From Planctomycetota bacterium (lineage in GTDB: Bacteria; Planctomycetota; B15-G4): a stretch of 64,000 nt of DNA. The position numbers were made by a program, and so were the translations under genes. This document shows positions 29,846 to 38,658 of this stretch, piece by piece. Under the pieces are notes generated by a model. The model was given only the letters and a program-made list of their open reading frames with translations. It was not told the origin of the DNA and made no database searches. The stretch spans positions 62,001 to 126,000 of the forward strand of contig JAJDEP010000019.1 of the NCBI GenBank assembly GCA_029259715.1. Direction: 5' to 3'. Positions within the stretch are counted from its first letter, which is position 1. The number at the start of each line of letters is the position of its first letter.

Positions 29846-31210
29846 ATGGGCACCCACAGGCGCGTCGTCCTGATCACGCCCGATCGTGTCGCCGATCGGC
29901 ACGCCGGGATCGCGTTGCGGCATCTCGGCCTGGCCCGCGCGCTCACGCGCTGCGGCCACGACGTCCTGCTCTGCTCGACCGACCCAGCTTCCTCCTGGTC
30001 CGGGGACGCCTTCGCCTTCGCCATCGCCACCAACGACACCGTGCCGCACTTGCTGGCCGGTGCGGACGCCTGTCTCGTGCAGGGCGCCGCGCTGCAGGGC
30101 CTGCCCGCACTCCTGACCCAGGACGTGCCCCTCGTGGTCGACCTGATCTGCCCCATCTTCCTGGAGAACCTCGAGCGCTACCGGGGGCAGCCGGGCGGCG
30201 AGGCCCTGCTGCGCAGTGACCACGACCTGTTCCGCGAAGCGCTCGTGGCGGGTGATGCCTTCCTGTGCGGCAGCGAGACGCAGCGACAGTTCTGGCTCGG
30301 CATGCTGGCGGCGCACGGCCGCCTCACCATCGCGGCCACCGACGACGACCCCGGCTTCGACCGGCGGCTCCGCAGCGTGCCGTTCGGCGTCCCTGAGATG
30401 GCCCCGGTCAAACGTCAGCCCGTGCTCAAGGGCGTCGTGCCCGGCATCGGGAGCGACGCAGTCGTCGCCTGGTGGGGCGGCGGGCTGTGGAACTGGCTCG
30501 ATCCGCTGACCCCCATCCGCGCCCTGGCCGCCCTGCGCCCCTCGCACCCCGAGCTCAAGCTGGTCTTCACCGGGCTGCGCCGGCCGCAGGACACCGCGGG
30601 CCTGACGCCCATGGCCCGCGCCGCCATGGCCCTCGCCAAGAGCCTCGACGTCGAGCAGCGCAGCGTGTTCTTCCTGGAGGGCTGGGTCCCCGGTGAACAG
30701 CTCGGTGACTACGTGCTCGAGGCCGACATCGGGATCACCGCCCACCGCGCGACGCTCGAGTCCCGCTTCGCGGTGCGCACGCGGTTCTGGACGTACCTCT
30801 GGGGCGGACTCCCCATCGTCGCCACGGCTGGAGACGTGACCGCCGAGCAGGTCGAACGACACGAGCTGGGCTGCGTCACGCCGCCGGGAGACGTCGACGC
30901 CATGGCCGAGAGTCTGCGCCGGTTGACCGACCCGGCCGCACGGGCTCAACACGCCACCGCCTCGCGCCGGCTCGCCGCCGCGTCGACGTGGGACGCGGCC
31001 GTCGCGTCGCTCGACGACTTGTTGCGCAGCGGCATCCCCCGCGGTGACCGCGCCGCCCGACTGGCCACCCTGCCCCCCTCGCCGCGCTTCTCCCGGGCGG
31101 GAAACAACCTGCGCAAATTCGGGGCGACGGCCGCGGCCGAGGGCCTGCCCACCGCGCTGCGTCGATCGTGGGTCAAGCTCTCCGGCCGCTCCGCGGACGC
31201 CGACGCGTGA
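29846..31210 (+). CDS. GT4-type (GT-B) glycosyltransferase
   Basis: 454 residues. N-terminal Rossmann half starts RRVVLITPDRVADRHAGIALRH with a nucleotide/acceptor loop. The C-terminal half contains AVVAWWGGGLWNWLDPLTP, LKLVFTGLRRPQDT, FLEGWVPGEQLGDYVLEADIGI and the E-x7-E-like region HRATLESRFAVRTRFWTYLWGGLPIV, as in GT4/WsaF-type enzymes. A 60-residue basic C-terminal tail follows. Its stop overlaps the GTG start of the Wzm permease (GTGA), so they are one operon. Sugar donor unknown. Confidence 0.85.
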   Translation: MGTHRRVVLITPDRVADRHAGIALRHLGLARALTRCGHDVLLCSTDPASSWSGDAFAFAIATNDTVPHLLAGADACLVQGAALQGLPALLTQDVPLVVDLICPIFLENLERYRGQPGGEALLRSDHDLFREALVAGDAFLCGSETQRQFWLGMLAAHGRLTIAATDDDPGFDRRLRSVPFGVPEMAPVKRQPVLKGVVPGIGSDAVVAWWGGGLWNWLDPLTPIRALAALRPSHPELKLVFTGLRRPQDTAGLTPMARAAMALAKSLDVEQRSVFFLEGWVPGEQLGDYVLEADIGITAHRATLESRFAVRTRFWTYLWGGLPIVATAGDVTAEQVERHELGCVTPPGDVDAMAESLRRLTDPAARAQHATASRRLAAASTWDAAVASLDDLLRSGIPRGDRAARLATLPPSPRFSRAGNNLRKFGATAAAEGLPTALRRSWVKLSGRSADADA

Positions 31211-31983
31211 TCGACCGCCTCGCGCAACTCTGGAAGTTCCGCGGTCTCGTCGGGAACCTGACGCGCGTCGAGCTGCTGGTGAAATACCGCGGCTCGGTGC
31301 TCGGGCTGCTGTGGTCGCTGCTCAACCCGCTGCTGATGATGTTCATCTACCTGGTGGCGTTCAAATACATCATGCGGCTGGAGCTCGAGAACTACACCTT
31401 CTACCTGCTCGTCGGACTGTTGCCGTGGGGCTTCTTCGCCACTTCCGTCACGGGCTCGACCATGGCGTTGATCAACAACGGCACGCTGCTCAAGAAGGTG
31501 CAGCTCCCCCGCGAGGTCTTCCCGGTTTCGGGCGTGGCCTTCCACACCGTCCAGTTGGCGCTGACCTTGGTCGCCTTCCTGCCCTTCACCCTGGCCTGGA
31601 AGGACGAGCTGCACTGGTTCCACTTGCTCTCGATCCCCGTCCTGCTGCTCTTCGTGGCGTTCACGCTGGGCGCCTGCATGGCGCTCTCGGCGCTCACCAC
31701 GCTCTACCGGGACCTCGAGCACTTCACCGAGATCGCCGTGGCGGCGACCTTCTGGTTCACGCCCATCGTCTACAATTTCGAGATGATCCCGGAGAACCTG
31801 CGCCCCGTGTTCCTGGCGAATCCGGTCACGCTCTTCATGAATTGCCTGCACGACATCCTCTACTGGGATCGCCTGCCGGGCCTGCTGACCGTCCTCGGCG
31901 TCTGCGTCTGGACACTCGTATCGCTGTGGGTGGGCAGCCTGATCTTCCGCCGCATCGAACCGCAGATCGCGGAGCGCGTGTGA
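31207..31983 (+). CDS. wzm: ABC-2 polysaccharide export permease (Wzm-like)
   Basis: 258 residues with six membrane segments. It opens with the cytoplasmic amphipathic helix typical of Wzm/TagG (IDRLAQLWKFRGLVGNLTR) and ELLVKYRGSVLGLLWSLLNP. The gate helices follow, and FTPIVYNFEMIPENLRPVFLANPVT is the conserved late loop. With the next gene it forms an ABC exporter that moves a lipid-linked glycan across the inner membrane. The start is GTG 31207, overlapping the previous stop; the end overlaps the next ATG by one base (TGATG). Confidence 0.92.
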   Translation: MIDRLAQLWKFRGLVGNLTRVELLVKYRGSVLGLLWSLLNPLLMMFIYLVAFKYIMRLELENYTFYLLVGLLPWGFFATSVTGSTMALINNGTLLKKVQLPREVFPVSGVAFHTVQLALTLVAFLPFTLAWKDELHWFHLLSIPVLLLFVAFTLGACMALSALTTLYRDLEHFTEIAVAATFWFTPIVYNFEMIPENLRPVFLANPVTLFMNCLHDILYWDRLPGLLTVLGVCVWTLVSLWVGSLIFRRIEPQIAERV

Positions 31984-32780
31984 TGCCGACCGTCATCGCG
32001 TGCAAGGGCGTCAGCAAGCATTTCCTGATCGGCGTCAACCGCATGCCCTCGCTGAAGTCCAAGTTCATCGGCGTGTTCAAGCCGCAGTACCGCGACCAGA
32101 TCCGCGAGCTGTGGGCCCTGCGCGACATCGACCTGGAGATCCAGGCGGGCGAGTCGGTGGGCATCATCGGCCCCAACGGCTCGGGCAAGAGCACGCTGTT
32201 CAAGCTCATCGGCGGCATCCTGCGGCCGACCCACGGAACGGTCGTCACCGAGGGGCGCATCGCGCCCATGATCGAGCTGGGTGTCGGCTTCCACAACGAG
32301 ATGACCGGGCTCGAGAACATCTACCTCAACACCAGCTACTACGGCATGTCCCGCAAGCAGACCAATGCCATCCTCGACGACATCGTCGAATTCTCGGAGC
32401 TGGGTGAGTTCGTCGGCACGCCGATCAAGAACTACTCCACCGGCATGGTCATGCGACTGGGCTTCTCCATCGCCATCCACACCGCACCGGACATCCTGCT
32501 CGTCGACGAGATCCTCGCCGTGGGCGACAAGGACTTCCGTGAGAAGTGCCTCGCCCGCATGACCGAGCTGCAACGCAGTGGGCGCACCTTCGTGATGGTC
32601 TCGCACGACGCCCACGAGGTGCGCCGCATGTGCGCGCGCGCCATCCTGCTCTGGCAGGGGCGCATCCTGGCCGACGGACCCTCCGACGAGGTGGTCGACC
32701 GCTACGAATCGCTCAACACCAAGGACTCGGTGCTCGGCATGCTGTCGCAGCCCGAGACCCAGGCGGTGGGCGGCCCATGA
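31983..32780 (+). CDS. wzt: ABC polysaccharide export ATPase (Wzt-like, without C-terminal binding domain)
   Basis: 265 residues. Walker A GPNGSGKST near 63-71, the H-loop-type IELGVGFHNEMTGLENIYLN segment, signature KNYSTGMVMRLGFSIAI, Walker B ILLVDEILAVGD and the switch His in FVMVSHDAHEVRRM. About 265 residues is the length of the nucleotide-binding domain alone. The carbohydrate-binding beta-sandwich that follows in E. coli O9a Wzt (protein about 430 residues) is absent. Export may thus not require terminal-residue recognition by Wzt itself, or recognition may be supplied by the beta domains of the next two proteins. Confidence 0.92.
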   Translation: MPTVIACKGVSKHFLIGVNRMPSLKSKFIGVFKPQYRDQIRELWALRDIDLEIQAGESVGIIGPNGSGKSTLFKLIGGILRPTHGTVVTEGRIAPMIELGVGFHNEMTGLENIYLNTSYYGMSRKQTNAILDDIVEFSELGEFVGTPIKNYSTGMVMRLGFSIAIHTAPDILLVDEILAVGDKDFREKCLARMTELQRSGRTFVMVSHDAHEVRRMCARAILLWQGRILADGPSDEVVDRYESLNTKDSVLGMLSQPETQAVGGP

Positions 32781-35146
32781 GCCCGGCCCCTACCGCACCC
32801 CTCGTGCTGGTGCTCGGCATGCACCGCAGCGGCACGTCCGCGGTCACCCGCGTCCTGAACCTGCTCGGGTTCGAGGTCGGCGCCGATCTCGAACCGGCCG
32901 GCAAGGGCAGCGAGACCGGCGTGTGGGAGCACTCGGGCCTCGTCAACGTGCACGACCGCCTGCTCACCGCGCTCGGCCTCGACGGCTGGTCCGATCCCGG
33001 CCCCCTGCCGGACGGATGGGAGCAGGACCCGCTGTGCACCCCCTTCCGCGATGAGCTGGTGTCGATCCTGCGCGCGACCTTTGCGGACGACGCCCCCATC
33101 GTCGTCAAGGACCCGCGCCTGTGCCGGCTGACCCCGCTGTGGTGGCCCGTGCTTCAGCAACTCCGGCGCCGGGCCGTGTGCGTCCTCAACCTGCGCCACC
33201 CTCAAGAGGTGGCCCGCTCGCTCGCCGAGCGCAACGCCCTGTCGGCGCAACGTTCGCACCTGCTGTGGCTGCGACACGTGTTCGAGTCGGAGCTGGCCAC
33301 GCGCAAGCATCCGCGCGTCGTCCTGCGCTACGACCGGCTGCTGACCCACTGGAAGCGCACCCTCAAGCCGCTCGAGGCCCTGCTCGGATCGGGCTTCCCC
33401 CGGTCCCCCGCCGAGGCGGCCGACGACATCGCCGCCTTCCTGCAACCGCCGCTGCGACACCACCGCTTCCGCAGCAACCGCGCCTGGATGGAACAGACCG
33501 AGCATGTGCCCTGGATCGCGGATGCCCACGCGGCCGCTCTGGCGCTGATTGAGAGCGATGACGCCGCCGCCCGCCGACGCTTCACCCGGCTGCGGCAGGA
33601 CTTCGATGCGGCCAGTCGCCTGTTCTCCGGCGGCCCGGCATTGCGGGCCGATGACGGCCGACCCGCGGGCGGCCCGTCCGCCGGCGGCGGCGACCCGGCG
33701 CTCGTGGCCGTCGTCGAGCGCTGGGATCACGGCCGGCTGGATGTCGACGGCACCACCGGCGAGCTGATCACCGGCAAGCAGGTCGAGTTCGAGCTGACGC
33801 CGCGGCACTCCAACTTCTGTGCGCTGGAGCTGCTGGTCGGAACCCACAAGCGCGTCAACACCTGCCTGCTGCTGATCGAGGTGATCGACTCGCTCGGCGA
33901 GGTCGTCGACCAACAGGAAGTGGCGGCCGACACGCTCGAGGACAACGCCTGGTTCAAGTTCCGCTTCCCGCCCCAGCCCGGCTCGGCCGGCAGCGCCCAT
34001 CGCGTCCGCGTCACTTCCCGGGACGCCGACGCCGGCAACGCGGTCAGCCTCTACTGCGGCGACGACGGACTGCCGGTCTTCCGCGCCTACTACGGCGCCC
34101 TCGTGGATGCCGCGGCGCGCTCCCCGGAGATCGCGGCCGCAGGCACGCAGATCGTGCCCTCGGTCGAGGTCATCACGCGGCTGCAGACCCAGCTCGCCGA
34201 GTTGCGCCGGGCCTTCATGCACGCCCAGCAGGGCCGCCGACAGGACGAGTCGGCCCAGGACGACCGCATCGCCGGCATCGCCGAGGCTTCGGGGCGCACC
34301 CACGACGGGTTGACCCGGCTCGAGCAGCGTCTCGTGGTCGACGCGCAACGCGCCCGCGACGCCGATCAGCGCGTCGAGCAACTCGAGGCCCGGTTGGGAA
34401 CCCGCGTCGACGAGCGCCTCCAGGAGGCCCTGCATGGCTTGAACGCGGCTCACAAGCAACGGCTGCGACTGCAGAGCGAAGTCAGCGACCTCGTCGAGCA
34501 GGTGAGCAACCTCGCCGGGCAGGTCGCCGGAGTCTCAGGGCAAGTCAGCGACGTCACCGGTGAGCTCACTGAAGTCCGCCGCGCTGCCCGGGCCCAGGCC
34601 GAGGCGGAGGTGACGCGTGCCGAGGCGGAAGAGGCACGGGCCGAGACCCTGCGGAAACAGACCGCCAGCGTCGGCGCACAATTCGGCGAGCAGGTCACCG
34701 CCTTGGTCCGGCAACACACCCGGACCGCCGAGGCCCTGCAGGCCCTCACCGGCGACGTGGCCGAGGCCGGCAGCACTCTCACCGAGCTGGCAGCGCGTCT
34801 CGATCGTCACGACGAAGAACGACCGGATCGCGCCGCCGCCGTGCATGGTCTCACGGGCCAGGTGGATCAGCTGCGCGAGCGCCTGACCTCACGCCTGGGA
34901 CAGCTCGATCGCCGCCTCGAGGAGCTGCACGCCGGCGCCTGGGAGCGTCGTCTGGCCGAGGTGGAGAGCCGGGTCGACGGCGAGAGCACCAGCCAGCGCC
35001 GCTCGCTCGCCGAGCTGCGCGAATTCACCGACACCATCGCGCGTCAGGCCCGCGCTCTGCAGGCGGGTCTGCTCGAGATCGACGCCAGCATGGCGGCCGG
35101 ATTCGAGGTCATCGAGGAGGCCCTCGCCGCGGAGGATCTGCCATGA
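32777..35146 (+). CDS. Sulfotransferase with beta domain and long coiled coil (candidate glycan chain terminator)
   Basis: 789 residues from ATG 32777, overlapping the Wzt stop (ATGA). Residues 1-290 are a PAPS-dependent sulfotransferase: 5'-phosphosulfate loop VLGMHRSGTSAVTRVL (11-26), KDPRLCRLTPLW, and 3'-phosphate segment VLNLRHPQEVARSLAERN. Residues about 318-438 are a beta-sandwich-like domain with LLIEVIDSLGEVV, DNAWFKFRFPPQPGSAG and RVRVTSRDADAGNAVSLYCG. Residues about 462-785 are heptad-patterned coiled coil with few prolines, for example QVSNLAGQVAGVSGQVSDV. The coil would be over 40 nm if fully extended. Position after wzm-wzt suggests that it sulfates and ends the growing glycan while the coil measures length; this is inference. 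Confidence 0.8.
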   Translation: MSPAPTAPLVLVLGMHRSGTSAVTRVLNLLGFEVGADLEPAGKGSETGVWEHSGLVNVHDRLLTALGLDGWSDPGPLPDGWEQDPLCTPFRDELVSILRATFADDAPIVVKDPRLCRLTPLWWPVLQQLRRRAVCVLNLRHPQEVARSLAERNALSAQRSHLLWLRHVFESELATRKHPRVVLRYDRLLTHWKRTLKPLEALLGSGFPRSPAEAADDIAAFLQPPLRHHRFRSNRAWMEQTEHVPWIADAHAAALALIESDDAAARRRFTRLRQDFDAASRLFSGGPALRADDGRPAGGPSAGGGDPALVAVVERWDHGRLDVDGTTGELITGKQVEFELTPRHSNFCALELLVGTHKRVNTCLLLIEVIDSLGEVVDQQEVAADTLEDNAWFKFRFPPQPGSAGSAHRVRVTSRDADAGNAVSLYCGDDGLPVFRAYYGALVDAAARSPEIAAAGTQIVPSVEVITRLQTQLAELRRAFMHAQQGRRQDESAQDDRIAGIAEASGRTHDGLTRLEQRLVVDAQRARDADQRVEQLEARLGTRVDERLQEALHGLNAAHKQRLRLQSEVSDLVEQVSNLAGQVAGVSGQVSDVTGELTEVRRAARAQAEAEVTRAEAEEARAETLRKQTASVGAQFGEQVTALVRQHTRTAEALQALTGDVAEAGSTLTELAARLDRHDEERPDRAAAVHGLTGQVDQLRERLTSRLGQLDRRLEELHAGAWERRLAEVESRVDGESTSQRRSLAELREFTDTIARQARALQAGLLEIDASMAAGFEVIEEALAAEDLP

Positions 35147-38100
35147 CGCCGGCGACCACCCGCCCCCTCAACGTGCTGCAGGTCGACCCGTGCCAGGGCG
35201 CGACGGTGCGGCGCTATCGCGTCGGCAACCTCGCCGAGCAGCTGCGTCTCGCCGGCGACGCGGTCACGGCGTGGACCGATGACGACCTGCGCCGCGAGGT
35301 CGAACGTGGGGACATCGACGCCACCGTGGCCCACTACGACCTGCTCATCCTGCACCGCTTCCCGTGGTGCACCGCCGTGGAGCGGCTGCTGCAGGCGGCC
35401 CGGACCGCCGGCATCCGCACGGCGTTCGAGGCGGACGACCTGGTCTTCGTTCCCGGCGTCGGTCGCTGGGTCGACGGCCTGCGGCACCTCGACCCGGGCG
35501 AGCTGAAGCTCTACGACGAGGGCCTGCAACGCTACGCGGCGAGCGATGCGGCCTGCGACACCTTCATCGGGGCCACCTCCTTCCTGGCCGGGCTGCGCGC
35601 GGGACCGCCACGACCGTCCGTCGTCATCCCCAACCTGCTCGGCGAGGAGCAGGTCGCCGTCGCGGAGAGGCTGCACCGCAAGGGCCGCTCACGCGCTCAC
35701 GGGGCCGGGGGCGGGGCGGCGCACGAAGTGGTCATCGCCTACGGCTCCGGCACGCGCACCCACGACGCCGACCTCGCGGCCATCGCGCCCGCGCTGGCCC
35801 AGGTGCTCACCGCCCATGTCGGGGCCCGGCTGATGCTCGTCGGCCTCGTCGACCTCCCCGAAGCCCTGCGACCCTACGCCGACCGGGTGCGGCTGGAGCC
35901 GGTCGGCCCCTGGGAACACTGGTGGGAGTTGCTCGCCGCTTGCGACATCGCCGTCGCCCCGCTCGAGGAGCGCAACCCCTACTGCCGCGCCAAGAGCGCG
36001 CTCAAGTACCTCGAGGCCGGCGCCCTCGGTGTGCCCCTCGTGGCGAGCCGCATCGACGCCTATGAGCAGGTCATCGACGACGGCCGCACCGGCCTGCTCG
36101 CGTCCGGTACCGATGAGTGGGCGCAGGCCGTTTCGCGCCTCGTCGAGGACACCGACCTGCGCGGGCACATGGGGCGCCGCGCGCGCAAGGACGTGCTGCG
36201 GCGGCACACCACCAAGGCCCGCTTCGCCGAGACCCACGCGACCCTGCGCGCCCTGGTCGACGGCAAGGTCGAGGCCCGGCAGCGCCCCGAGGGCTGGCGC
36301 GGCTTCGATCTCGCCACGGTGATCCCGCCGGCCACGGTCGGTTCCGGCGGACACACCGTCATCTTCCGCACGGTGCGCTCGATGATCGAGCGCGGCCACC
36401 GCACCACCGTGCTGCACGAGTTCGACGGGCGCGGCTTCACTCACGAACAGGTCGAGGGGTTCATCGACGCGGCCTTCTTCCCGACCGGCGCCACCTATCG
36501 CTCCGGCTGGGAGCTCGACCCCGCACGCTTCGATGCCGTCATGGCCACCGCCTGGAACACCGCCGAGTGGGTGGCCGGCCTCGACGTCCCCGCGCGGCTC
36601 TACTTCGTGCAGGACCTCGAGCACCTGTTCTTCCCGGCCTCGGAGAATCACGTGATGGCCGAGCGCACCTACGCGCTGGGGCTCTCGTGCATCACCATCG
36701 GCCGCTGGCTGACGGAAGTCCTGCGCCACCAGTACGGCGCCGACAGCGTCGACTTCCCCTTCCTGTTGCACGTCGACCGGCCCCGCCCGACCCGCGCCGT
36801 GTCCGACGACCGGCCCACCGTCACCTACTTCGCCCAACCCGGCAAGCTGCGTCGCGCCTACGAGATGGGCGTGGCCGCCCTCGCTCGACTGCACGCGGCC
36901 CACCCCGCCGTGCGCATCGTGTTCTTCGGTTCGGCCGCCGTCGATCCGAACGCGGTGCCCTTCCCCTTCGAGGACGCCGGCGTCGTCTCGGAGGCCGAAC
37001 TCGAGGAGCTCTACCTGCGCAGCGACGTGGGACTGGTGATCTCGCTCACCAATCCCTCCGCCGTCCCGCCGAACATGATGCGCTGCGGCTGCGCCGTGGT
37101 GGACGTCGACCTGGAGAACAACCGCTTCGAGTACCGCGACGGCGTCGACTCGCTGCTGGCACCTCCGACAACCGACGGCCTGGCCCAGGCCTTGATCCGC
37201 GTGGTCGCTGACGCCGACCTGCGGCGCACCCTGCAGGCCGGCGCCGTCGCGTCCATCGCCCCCCGATCGGAGCCACGCTCGATGGACCTGATCGAGGCCG
37301 CCCTGGTGCGCTCCATCGTGGCGGGCCGGGCCCGGGCCCCGGAGCGGCTCGACCTGCACGAGCGCGGCGGCAACGCCCACGTCTCGCTCGAGCAGGGCCC
37401 GGCGGTGGCCCGGTTCGAAGCCCGGCACGACGGCCTCTGCGCCGTCTCCTTCTTCCTCGGCACCTTCGGCCGCACGCCCTCGGATCTGGCCCTGTCGCTG
37501 CGACGCTCGTCCGACGAAACCGTGGTCGCCCGCGTGATCCTCCCGGGCAGCACGGTGGGCGACAACGAGTGGGCGCGCTTCGACTTCGAGGCCCTGCCGC
37601 ACAGCGCGGGCGAAGGCTTCTCCTGCGAGCTCTCGATGATGCCCGGCGCCGACGCCCCGGTGGCCGTCTACCGCTCGGCCACCGACGGCACCGGTCGGGT
37701 GCGCTGCACGGTGGGCGGCTTCGCCAGCGGCCCGTTCCGCATGAGCGTCCACGCCGACCCCGACGCCTTCCCGCACACGGGGACCGAGGGCGCGGCGCGG
37801 CGGACCTCCACGACACGCCGGCTCGCGGCGGCCTCCCGGGCCCTCCCGGACTCCGCGTCCCCCGGCGAGAGCGGGACGTCCGGCCGCTCGACGGGCGACC
37901 CGGCCGGCAGCGCGTCGGGTGGCGAGCCCCCGCGCGCCGCGGTGCGGGTGGCCGAGTTGTTGCGCAACCGACACCAGCGCGACGTCCAGGCCCGACGCCG
38001 GACCGACGACCGCGTGGGCTCGGCTCTGGGCCAGATGGACGGACGCCTGGGCCGGGTCGAGACGAGCCTGCGCTCCGTCTCGACCACCCTGCAGCGCGCG

Positions 38101-38658
38101 CGCACCTGGCTGGCCCGACCGGGCCTCCGGCGCGTGCTCACCTTCCTGCGCATCCTGCCGCCGGAGGAGAGCTGGATCGAGCCGACCCGTTTCGTCACGC
38201 CCGAGCTGCGCAGCGGCACCATGGCGTCACAACGCTTCGTGGCCGAGCGCGACGGACTCGACCGGCTCTCCATCCGCTTCGCCACCGAGGGCCGCATGCC
38301 CAGCAACGACGTCCGCCTCCGGCTGCTCGACGGCCACAGCGGCGAGCTGCTGCGCCAGGTCAACATCCCGGCCGGTGAGATCGACGACAACCTCTATGCC
38401 GCCGCCGCCTTCCCGCCCCTGCCCGATTCGGCGCGCAAGACCTACCTCTTCGAGCTCACGTCGCCCGACGGTCTGCGCGGTTGCGGGGCCAAGATCTGGG
38501 GCGACCGCCACGGCCCGAAGGACGGCCCCGGGCGCAAGCGTCTGCAGGACGGCCACCGCGCGCCCGGCTGCCTCGACTTCCGTCTCGACTATGCCGGGAG
38601 CGTCGCGCCGGACGAGAGCTCCAACGGCCGCGCGAACGGTTCCGCAGGGCGCGCCTGA
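35143..38658 (+). CDS. Tandem glycosyltransferase with two beta domains (candidate glycan polymerase)
   Basis: 1171 residues, ATGA overlap with the preceding gene. Residues 8-385 form one GT-B (GT4) enzyme, with FEADDLVFVP, VIAYGSGTRTHDADL, CDIAVAPLEERNPYCRAKSALK and YLEAGALGVPLVAS. Residues about 390-730 form a second, WsaF-like GT-B enzyme: IPPATVGSGGHTVIFR, RLYFVQDLEHLFFPASEN, VTYFAQPGKLRRAYEMG and VISLTNPSAVPPNMMRCGC. Then come beta domain 1 (about 734-850), a disordered and short coiled region (about 860-990), and beta domain 2 (about 1023-1122) with RLRLLDGHSGELLRQV. The beta domains resemble that of the sulfotransferase. Two active sites in one chain fit a repeat-unit polymerase like WbdA. 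Confidence 0.85.
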   Translation: MTPATTRPLNVLQVDPCQGATVRRYRVGNLAEQLRLAGDAVTAWTDDDLRREVERGDIDATVAHYDLLILHRFPWCTAVERLLQAARTAGIRTAFEADDLVFVPGVGRWVDGLRHLDPGELKLYDEGLQRYAASDAACDTFIGATSFLAGLRAGPPRPSVVIPNLLGEEQVAVAERLHRKGRSRAHGAGGGAAHEVVIAYGSGTRTHDADLAAIAPALAQVLTAHVGARLMLVGLVDLPEALRPYADRVRLEPVGPWEHWWELLAACDIAVAPLEERNPYCRAKSALKYLEAGALGVPLVASRIDAYEQVIDDGRTGLLASGTDEWAQAVSRLVEDTDLRGHMGRRARKDVLRRHTTKARFAETHATLRALVDGKVEARQRPEGWRGFDLATVIPPATVGSGGHTVIFRTVRSMIERGHRTTVLHEFDGRGFTHEQVEGFIDAAFFPTGATYRSGWELDPARFDAVMATAWNTAEWVAGLDVPARLYFVQDLEHLFFPASENHVMAERTYALGLSCITIGRWLTEVLRHQYGADSVDFPFLLHVDRPRPTRAVSDDRPTVTYFAQPGKLRRAYEMGVAALARLHAAHPAVRIVFFGSAAVDPNAVPFPFEDAGVVSEAELEELYLRSDVGLVISLTNPSAVPPNMMRCGCAVVDVDLENNRFEYRDGVDSLLAPPTTDGLAQALIRVVADADLRRTLQAGAVASIAPRSEPRSMDLIEAALVRSIVAGRARAPERLDLHERGGNAHVSLEQGPAVARFEARHDGLCAVSFFLGTFGRTPSDLALSLRRSSDETVVARVILPGSTVGDNEWARFDFEALPHSAGEGFSCELSMMPGADAPVAVYRSATDGTGRVRCTVGGFASGPFRMSVHADPDAFPHTGTEGAARRTSTTRRLAAASRALPDSASPGESGTSGRSTGDPAGSASGGEPPRAAVRVAELLRNRHQRDVQARRRTDDRVGSALGQMDGRLGRVETSLRSVSTTLQRARTWLARPGLRRVLTFLRILPPEESWIEPTRFVTPELRSGTMASQRFVAERDGLDRLSIRFATEGRMPSNDVRLRLLDGHSGELLRQVNIPAGEIDDNLYAAAAFPPLPDSARKTYLFELTSPDGLRGCGAKIWGDRHGPKDGPGRKRLQDGHRAPGCLDFRLDYAGSVAPDESSNGRANGSAGRA

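What the first reader, a model, noticed from the sequence alone, without database searches (positions are those of the whole stretch)
31207..38658. Sulfotransferase plus coiled-coil ruler beside Wzm/Wzt: possible new type of glycan chain-length control
Seen: wzm, wzt, then a 789-residue protein made of sulfotransferase, beta domain and about 320 residues of heptad coiled coil, then a two-domain glycosyltransferase, all with overlapping start/stop codons. Known: in E. coli O9a the order is wzm, wzt, wbdD, wbdA. WbdD caps the chain by phosphorylation and methylation and uses a coiled coil as a molecular ruler, and WbdA is the multi-domain polymerase. Inferred: here the capping reaction is sulfation. 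I know of no described sulfotransferase-based terminator.
Basis: partly seen in the sequence, partly recalled or inferred. Interest (0 to 1): 0.78.

Follow-up and report, generated by a model that had tools for sequence, protein, structure and literature searches.

The report
Sulfotransferase-coil protein beside glycan exporter
Next to a bacterial sugar-chain exporter lies an enzyme that probably adds a sulfate group and carries a long rod; the same arrangement recurs in unrelated bacteria in the place where E. coli keeps the enzyme that caps and measures its sugar chains, suggesting an undescribed sulfate-capping version of that system.

Summary
Window 31207-38658 holds wzm, wzt, a 789-aa sulfotransferase-beta-coil protein and a 1171-aa two-GT protein, joined by overlapping start/stop codons. 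Motifs, family profiles and predicted fold say PAPS-dependent sulfotransferase. The coil is a broken helical rod of about 300 residues. The order matches wzm-wzt-wbdD-wbdA of E. coli O8, checked here.

New evidence: N-terminal sulfotransferase plus coil is a widespread architecture. In 11 of 74 relatives with at least 1 kb upstream it lies just downstream of wzt (Pseudomonadota, Desulfobacterota, Myxococcota, Bacillota). All 10 such Wzts scanned carry the Wzt_C module, which in E. coli reads the cap. Some relatives are sulfotransferase-coil-GT-GT fusions like WbbB; a same-family relative has wzm-wzt-(sulfotransferase+methyltransferase); 16 of 86 share a post-coil motif with WbdD.

Against: most coil-bearing relatives (39 of 63) have no detectable Wzm/Wzt within 10 kb. 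The window's Wzt lacks Wzt_C, its coil lacks the post-coil motif, and nothing shows that sulfate is terminal. Sulfation within repeats with the coil as scaffold stays a serious rival; E. coli K5 KfiB may be a degenerate scaffold of this kind.

Verdict: probable sulfotransferase-type terminator/ruler (about 0.5), a new variant of a known kind.

The parts
29846..31210 (+). GT4 glycosyltransferase, stop overlaps wzm start
   Evidence: Glyco_trans_1_4 E 2.4e-7; coordinates
31207..31983 (+). wzm, ABC-2 permease of the glycan exporter (GTG start)
   Evidence: ABC2_membrane E 2.5e-14; Wzm/RfbD model E 3.4e-18, below its cut-off
31983..32780 (+). wzt, ABC ATPase, 265 aa, without C-terminal Wzt_C carbohydrate-binding domain
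   Evidence: ABC_tran E 1.2e-19, no Wzt_C match; TagH/Wzt-type models lead in NCBIfam
32777..35146 (+). P0001: sulfotransferase + beta domain + coiled coil, 789 aa; candidate terminator/ruler
32777..33631 (+). sulfotransferase domain (aa 1-285): GMHRSGTS, KDPR, RHPQEVARSLAER motifs
   Evidence: invariant columns in alignments A1 and A3; blocks of pLDDT mostly above 90; Foldseek to PAPS sulfotransferases
33695..34126 (+). beta-sandwich domain (aa 307-450), CBM-like fold, no Pfam family
   Evidence: model pLDDT 81.5; Foldseek to CBM6/CBM36-type modules
34154..35131 (+). coiled-coil rod (aa 460-785), five helical segments
35143..38658 (+). P0002: GT4 (aa about 1-375) + WsaF-like GT (about 385-740) + beta domain + short coil (about 956-992) + beta domain; candidate polymerase
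   Evidence: Pfam; beta copies; coil segment
37378..37812 (+). first beta domain of P0002
38158..38637 (+). second beta domain of P0002

Best explanation
P0001 is the terminator of an ABC-transporter-dependent glycan pathway. P0002 (two GT modules) extends a lipid-linked chain at the cytoplasmic membrane. The coil of P0001 holds its N-terminal sulfotransferase away from the membrane-proximal polymerase, so only a chain long enough to reach the active site is sulfated from PAPS. The sulfated end stops extension and the chain is exported by Wzm/Wzt. The CBM-like beta domains shared by P0001 and P0002 probably grip the glycan, perhaps standing in for the missing Wzt_C. Shown here: gene order, overlaps, domains, intact PAPS motifs, sulfotransferase fold, helical rod, recurrence in other phyla. 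Inferred: that the sulfate goes on the non-reducing end, that it stops growth, that the coil sets length, and that P0001 and P0002 form a complex.
For: Same order and overlaps as E. coli O8 wzm-wzt-wbdD-GT, where WbdD ends the chain (PMC3482155). Coiled-coil proteins carrying the terminating enzyme at the distal end mark this strategy (PMC11231755). Sulfotransferase just downstream of wzt in 11 of 74 relatives with at least 1 kb upstream, plus L093 and L072 and L046 and L042 in the window's own phylum. On the tree the wzt-linked label is scattered, with at least 10 changes forced by well-supported branches, so the pairing is not one inherited block. All 10 such Wzts scanned carry Wzt_C, which in E. 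coli recognises terminated chains. Sulfotransferase-coil-GT-GT fusions beside wzt (L073, L076, L116) copy the WbbB/O12 and O7 layout. Same-family L042 has wzm-wzt-(sulfotransferase+methyltransferase), recalling the kinase+methyltransferase of WbdD. Dyella L069 has wzm-wzt-sulfotransferase/coil-WsaF-GT4, the same GT types as P0002. The post-coil motif SxSWRxTxPLR of WbdD O8 occurs in 16 of 86 sulfotransferase proteins against 1 of 1308 neighbours. An APS kinase is present in the genome.
Against: Only 24 of 63 coil-bearing relatives have Wzm or Wzt within 10 kb. The coil-ABC association is not significant in this sample (p 0.09-0.36). The window's Wzt lacks Wzt_C and P0001 lacks the post-coil motif. 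Sulfation inside ABC-exported capsule repeats is documented (Cobetia, PMC11766843). In Aeromonas salmonicida a sulfotransferase gene sits between wzt and wbbB but no sulfate was found (PMC4483657). No glycan structure is known for this organism.
Confidence: 0.5

Rival explanations
1. The sulfotransferase decorates internal residues (each repeat, or some). The coil is a scaffold that keeps it with the glycosyltransferases at the membrane and sets no length.
For: Most coil-bearing relatives are not beside Wzm/Wzt. Internal sulfation of an ABC-exported capsule is known (PMC11766843). The window's Wzt has no cap-reading domain. In several relatives the coil is fused to GTs.
Against: Wzt_C in 10 of 10 wzt-linked relatives scanned suggests a recognised terminal group there. 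The position is that of wbdD. A sulfotransferase+methyltransferase fusion at that position in the same family resembles a two-step cap. Decoration alone would not need a 300-residue rod.
Confidence: 0.28
2. The protein works mainly as a structural scaffold of the synthase complex, with sulfation secondary or lost, as may be the case for E. coli K5 KfiB.
For: KfiB, encoded beside an ABC exporter and the K5 GTs, has a coil at 360-446 and a sulfotransferase-like N-terminus with degenerate motifs (GHPGSKYQ for GMHRSGTS, ADPS for KDPR; hhalign P 4.6e-4, probability only 33%). It is called a putative sulfotransferase in PMC13171606. Heparosan, the K5 polymer, is unsulfated (PMC6691538, abstract).
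Against: In P0001 every invariant PAPS-site residue is intact, as in all 40 sequences of A3, so selection keeps catalysis.
Confidence: 0.1
3. The sulfotransferase acts elsewhere (the primer or adaptor sugars, or another glycan), and its place in the operon is only co-expression.
For: Relatives often lie among general metabolic genes, and the genome has another sulfotransferase of the family.
Against: Tight overlap with wzt and the GT gene, shared beta domains in P0001 and P0002, recurrence next to wzt in several phyla.
Confidence: 0.1

Closest known systems
E. coli O8/O9a WbdD with WbdA (polymerase-terminator system with coiled-coil ruler)
   Same: Gene order wzm-wzt-terminator-multi-GT polymerase; overlapping genes; N-terminal catalytic domain then coil; some relatives share the post-coil SxSWRxTxPLR motif and a Wzt with Wzt_C.
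   Different: Catalytic domain is a sulfotransferase, not methyltransferase or kinase; CBM-like beta domains in both proteins; the window's Wzt lacks Wzt_C and P0001 lacks the post-coil motif.
K. pneumoniae O12 WbbB, and O7 ORF6 (terminator-coil-GT-GT fusions)
   Same: Relatives L073, L076 and L116 are sulfotransferase-coil-GT-GT polypeptides beside wzm-wzt. O7 ORF6 also carries an extra CBM domain, function not pursued (PMC11231755).
   Different: WbbB caps with beta-Kdo (own knowledge) and ORF6 with methylphosphate; in the window terminator and polymerase are separate proteins.
E. coli K5 KfiB
   Same: Sulfotransferase-like N-terminus and coil, in an ABC-exported capsule locus beside two GTs.
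   Different: PAPS motifs degenerate, homology only suggestive, polymer not sulfated.
Aeromonas salmonicida wbsalmo ORF19
   Same: Sulfotransferase gene between wzt and the polymerase gene wbbB (PMC4483657).
   Different: 216 aa only, no coil reported; no sulfate found in the O antigen.
Geobacillus stearothermophilus WsaF rhamnosyltransferase
   Same: Second GT module of P0002 matches WsaF_C E 1.3e-10 and WsaF_N E 1.4e-4.
   Different: Here fused behind a GT4 module and followed by beta domains.

Membership tests
Coiled-coil polymerase-terminator systems (WbdD/WbbB type) | Wzm/Wzt ABC exporter in the same operon | tested here: met
   Pfam and overlaps
Coiled-coil polymerase-terminator systems (WbdD/WbbB type) | Catalytic terminator domain N-terminal to an extended coil | tested here: met
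   Domain order and AlphaFold2 helices; that the domain is a terminator is not shown
Coiled-coil polymerase-terminator systems (WbdD/WbbB type) | Multi-module polymerase encoded alongside or fused | tested here: met
   P0002 has two GT modules; polymerase activity not shown
Coiled-coil polymerase-terminator systems (WbdD/WbbB type) | Membrane-associated/polymerase-recruiting segment after the coil | tested here: inconclusive
   SxSWRxTxPLR absent from P0001 and P0002, present in WbdD O8 and 16 of 86 relatives; a looser tryptophan/arginine-rich stretch follows the short coil of P0002
Coiled-coil polymerase-terminator systems (WbdD/WbbB type) | Wzt with C-terminal cap-reading domain Wzt_C (O8/O9a type; not universal) | tested here: not met
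   Window Wzt is 265 aa without PF14524; met in 10 of 10 relatives scanned
Coiled-coil polymerase-terminator systems (WbdD/WbbB type) | Modification sits on the non-reducing end and stops growth | not testable with these tools
   No glycan structure; biochemistry needed
Coiled-coil polymerase-terminator systems (WbdD/WbbB type) | Coil length sets chain length | not testable with these tools
   Coil lengths of wzt-linked relatives vary from 38 to 487 residues, compatible but not proof
PAPS-dependent sulfotransferases | 5'-phosphosulfate loop and 3'-phosphate motif | tested here: met
   GMHRSGTS and RHPQEVARSLAER; G14 R17 S18 G19 T20 S21 K111 P113 R114 R140 S148 invariant
PAPS-dependent sulfotransferases | Sulfotransferase fold | tested here: met
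   Foldseek ranks 1-12 all sulfotransferases, best E 6.1e-5
PAPS-dependent sulfotransferases | Family profile over curated cut-off | tested here: inconclusive
   P0001 alone below cut-off; 33 of 40 sequences of A3 match Sulfotransfer_3 at E up to 0.01
PAPS-dependent sulfotransferases | PAPS supply in the genome | tested here: met
   APS kinase PF01583 E 4.5e-60
PAPS-dependent sulfotransferases | Sulfate transfer activity | not testable with these tools
   Needs enzyme assay

The most novel reading that the evidence does not exclude
Sulfotransferase-coil proteins are a whole undescribed class of chain-length terminators. Sulfate replaces methyl, methylphosphate or Kdo as the cap read by Wzt. 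The class is spread over several phyla, occurs as separate proteins, as sulfotransferase-coil-GT-GT fusions and as a sulfotransferase+methyltransferase form, and in this window uses CBM-like domains in terminator and polymerase in place of Wzt_C.
Probability: 0.42. Interest if true: 0.75.

Novelty: new variant of a known kind. Interest (0 to 1): 0.64.

Why it matters
If true, the coiled-coil polymerase-terminator strategy gains a new capping chemistry, a charged sulfate, across Gram-negative and at least one Gram-positive lineage. It would give uncharacterised sulfotransferase genes beside wzt a predicted job, raise the question of how Wzt_C reads sulfate, and offer a handle for making sulfated glycans of set length. 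It would also bear on KfiB, a K5 capsule protein whose function is not settled. The paper found on coiled-coil terminators (PMC11231755) does not mention sulfate.

Tried and rejected
Sequence search of P0001 against the PDB found nothing useful; profile and fold searches were needed. Pfam's Sec10_N hit over cut-off on P0001 is a generic coiled-coil match and was rejected. An alignment with beta-only fragments misplaced them, so sulfotransferase and beta domain were modelled separately. Hence the beta domain has low confidence in the full-length model and is judged from its own model. Homology of the beta domain to Wzt_C was tested and not found. A significant link of coil with ABC neighbourhood was looked for and not found. 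Coil-bearing sulfotransferases had no Wzx nearby (0 of 63 against 4 of 13), but three of the four are close Nitrosomonadaceae kin and Wzx detection from E. coli seeds was weak, so this is not used as evidence. Looking for Wzt_C elsewhere in 46 genomes mostly put it on another contig than the sulfotransferase. The first Nissle assembly lacked the kfi genes; the second had them.
Full report
OBSERVATION. The four genes are as described. wzm runs 31207-31983, wzt 31983-32780, P0001 32777-35146 (789 aa) and P0002 35143-38658 (1171 aa). Every start overlaps the previous stop, and the upstream GT4 gene overlaps wzm in the same way. Further upstream on the same strand lie a methyltransferase, a PMT_2-like membrane protein and a PhyH oxygenase.

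SULFOTRANSFERASE. P0001 alone falls under Pfam cut-offs. Its alignment shows the two PAPS-binding motifs: GMHRSGTS, and RHPxEVAxSLxxR with KDPR before it. G14, R17-S21, K111, P113, R114, R140 and S148 are invariant in 40 sequences. 33 of the 40 match Sulfotransfer_3. A profile search finds aryl and tyrosylprotein sulfotransferases in the PDB. The AlphaFold2 model of the domain is confident, and Foldseek ranks 1-12 are all sulfotransferases. The genome encodes an APS kinase. Activity is not shown.

COIL. Residues 460-785 hold only 2 prolines in 326 residues. 85% of positions pass the heptad score against a mean of 14% in shuffles (0 of 300 reach it). AlphaFold2 predicts five helices with breaks near 586-592, 679-684, 719-720 and 733-737 at moderate confidence. 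It is a long rod, interrupted rather than continuous. Oligomeric state could not be tested.

BETA DOMAIN. A domain of about 145 residues, with no Pfam family, sits between sulfotransferase and coil and occurs twice more in P0002. Its model (pLDDT 81.5) resembles CBM6- and CBM36-type modules, with moderate TM scores of about 0.4-0.5. In 337 genomes of the phylum it appears in only four, the window's own included, fused to a methyltransferase (L054) or to large membrane or GT proteins (L150, L151). I read it as a glycan-gripping module; this is inference.

POLYMERASE CANDIDATE. P0002 has a GT4 module and a WsaF-like module, then beta, short coil, beta. In Dyella L069 the gene after the sulfotransferase-coil is a WsaF homologue (E 1e-43), followed by a GT4 gene: the same pair, unfused, in another phylum.

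RELATIVES. A scan of GTDB genomes with the sulfotransferase alignment kept 80 loci. 62 of the 76 with a called gene carry some coil downstream of the domain. Among 74 with at least 1 kb of upstream DNA, 11 lie just downstream of wzt: Sulfuricella, two Dyella, Rhodanobacter, Stenotrophomonas pictorum, an alphaproteobacterium, Desulfomonile, Desulfonema, two further deltaproteobacterial MAGs and the Gram-positive Paenibacillus sedimenti. Ten of these Wzts were scanned and all ten hold Wzt_C, the module that in E. coli recognises terminated chains (PMC3482155). L073, L076 and L116 are sulfotransferase-coil-GT-GT single polypeptides beside wzt. In the window's own phylum, L046 has wzm-wzt-sulfotransferase-GT-GT; L039-L041 have sulfotransferase-coil immediately before wzm-wzt; and the same-family genome G103 (L042) has wzm, wzt (found by tblastn, missed by my gene caller), then a sulfotransferase-methyltransferase fusion. 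On the tree the wzt-linked label is scattered, with at least 10 changes forced by well-supported branches. This argues for repeated pairing rather than one inherited operon, although lateral transfer of whole operons is not excluded.

SHARED MOTIF WITH WbdD. Right after the coil, WbdD O8 reads SRSWRITQPLR. The same pattern ends the coil in 16 of 86 sulfotransferase proteins, and occurs in 1 of 1308 other proteins of these loci and in none of 20 rounds of shuffled sulfotransferase proteins. In WbdD the region after the coil is said to be membrane-associated and to recruit the polymerase (PMC11231755). P0001 lacks the motif.

WHAT SPEAKS AGAINST. Only 24 of 63 coil-bearing relatives have Wzm or Wzt within 10 kb, and the coil-ABC association is not significant. 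Flanks of ten non-ABC loci are mostly general metabolism with scattered glycan genes. So the architecture is wider than ABC systems, or its exporters lie elsewhere. The window's Wzt has no Wzt_C. Internal sulfation of an ABC-exported capsule is documented in Cobetia (PMC11766843). KfiB of E. coli K5 looks like a degenerate sulfotransferase with a coil (homology suggestive only), in a locus whose polymer is unsulfated; this shows that such a protein could serve as scaffold.

COMPARISON AND VERDICT. It works like, and is laid out like, the coiled-coil polymerase-terminator systems of E. coli O8/O9a and K. pneumoniae O12/O7. Full membership is not claimed, because the terminal position of the sulfate and length control are untested and one common feature (Wzt_C) is missing in the window. 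My literature searches found no described sulfotransferase terminator; the paper on coiled-coil terminators found contains no 'sulf' word. Coverage is open-access papers only, so absence is not proof. Best reading: a sulfotransferase-type terminator/ruler, confidence 0.5; a new variant of a known kind.

Noticed in passing
L053:18036-19010 (own genome, contig C9 end): A second sulfotransferase with the start of a coil, 45% identical to P0001, is cut by the contig end. About 18-21 kb away on the same contig lie a wzm (L160:15234-16316) and a Wzt_C-bearing reading frame (L158).
   Followed up: partly
L042:7717-11119: Same-family genome has wzm, wzt and a sulfotransferase+methyltransferase fusion whose start overlaps the wzt stop: a possible two-step sulfo/methyl cap.
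   Followed up: partly
L156:7346-9034 (E. coli Nissle K5 locus): KfiB looks like a degenerate sulfotransferase-coil protein: collinear motif remnants, hhalign P 4.6e-4, coil 360-446. It might be a scaffold.
   Followed up: partly
L150, L151, L054: The unnamed beta domain also occurs in large multi-pass membrane proteins, a GT2-GT4 protein and a methyltransferase; it may deserve a family of its own.
   Followed up: partly
L119:7745-17792 (Paenibacillus sedimenti): Gram-positive wzm-wzt(Wzt_C)-sulfotransferase/coil operon with GTs and a YfhO protein.
   Followed up: partly
L039-L041: Three genomes of one genus in the window's phylum carry sulfotransferase with a short coil directly upstream of wzm-wzt, with short Wzts, as a reversed order.
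   Followed up: no
window:38672-40701 (-): A predicted protein without a Pfam match and a polysaccharide pyruvyl transferase (PF04230 E 9e-21) face the operon on the other strand; they may belong to the same glycan locus.
   Followed up: no
window:43324-46732 (+): Two adjacent secreted-looking proteins of about 560 aa, rich in repeated N-rich strands that look like right-handed beta-helix repeats.
   Followed up: no
window:40820-41449 (+): Phage tail collar domain protein (PF07484 E 1.5e-28) next to the glycan locus.
   Followed up: no
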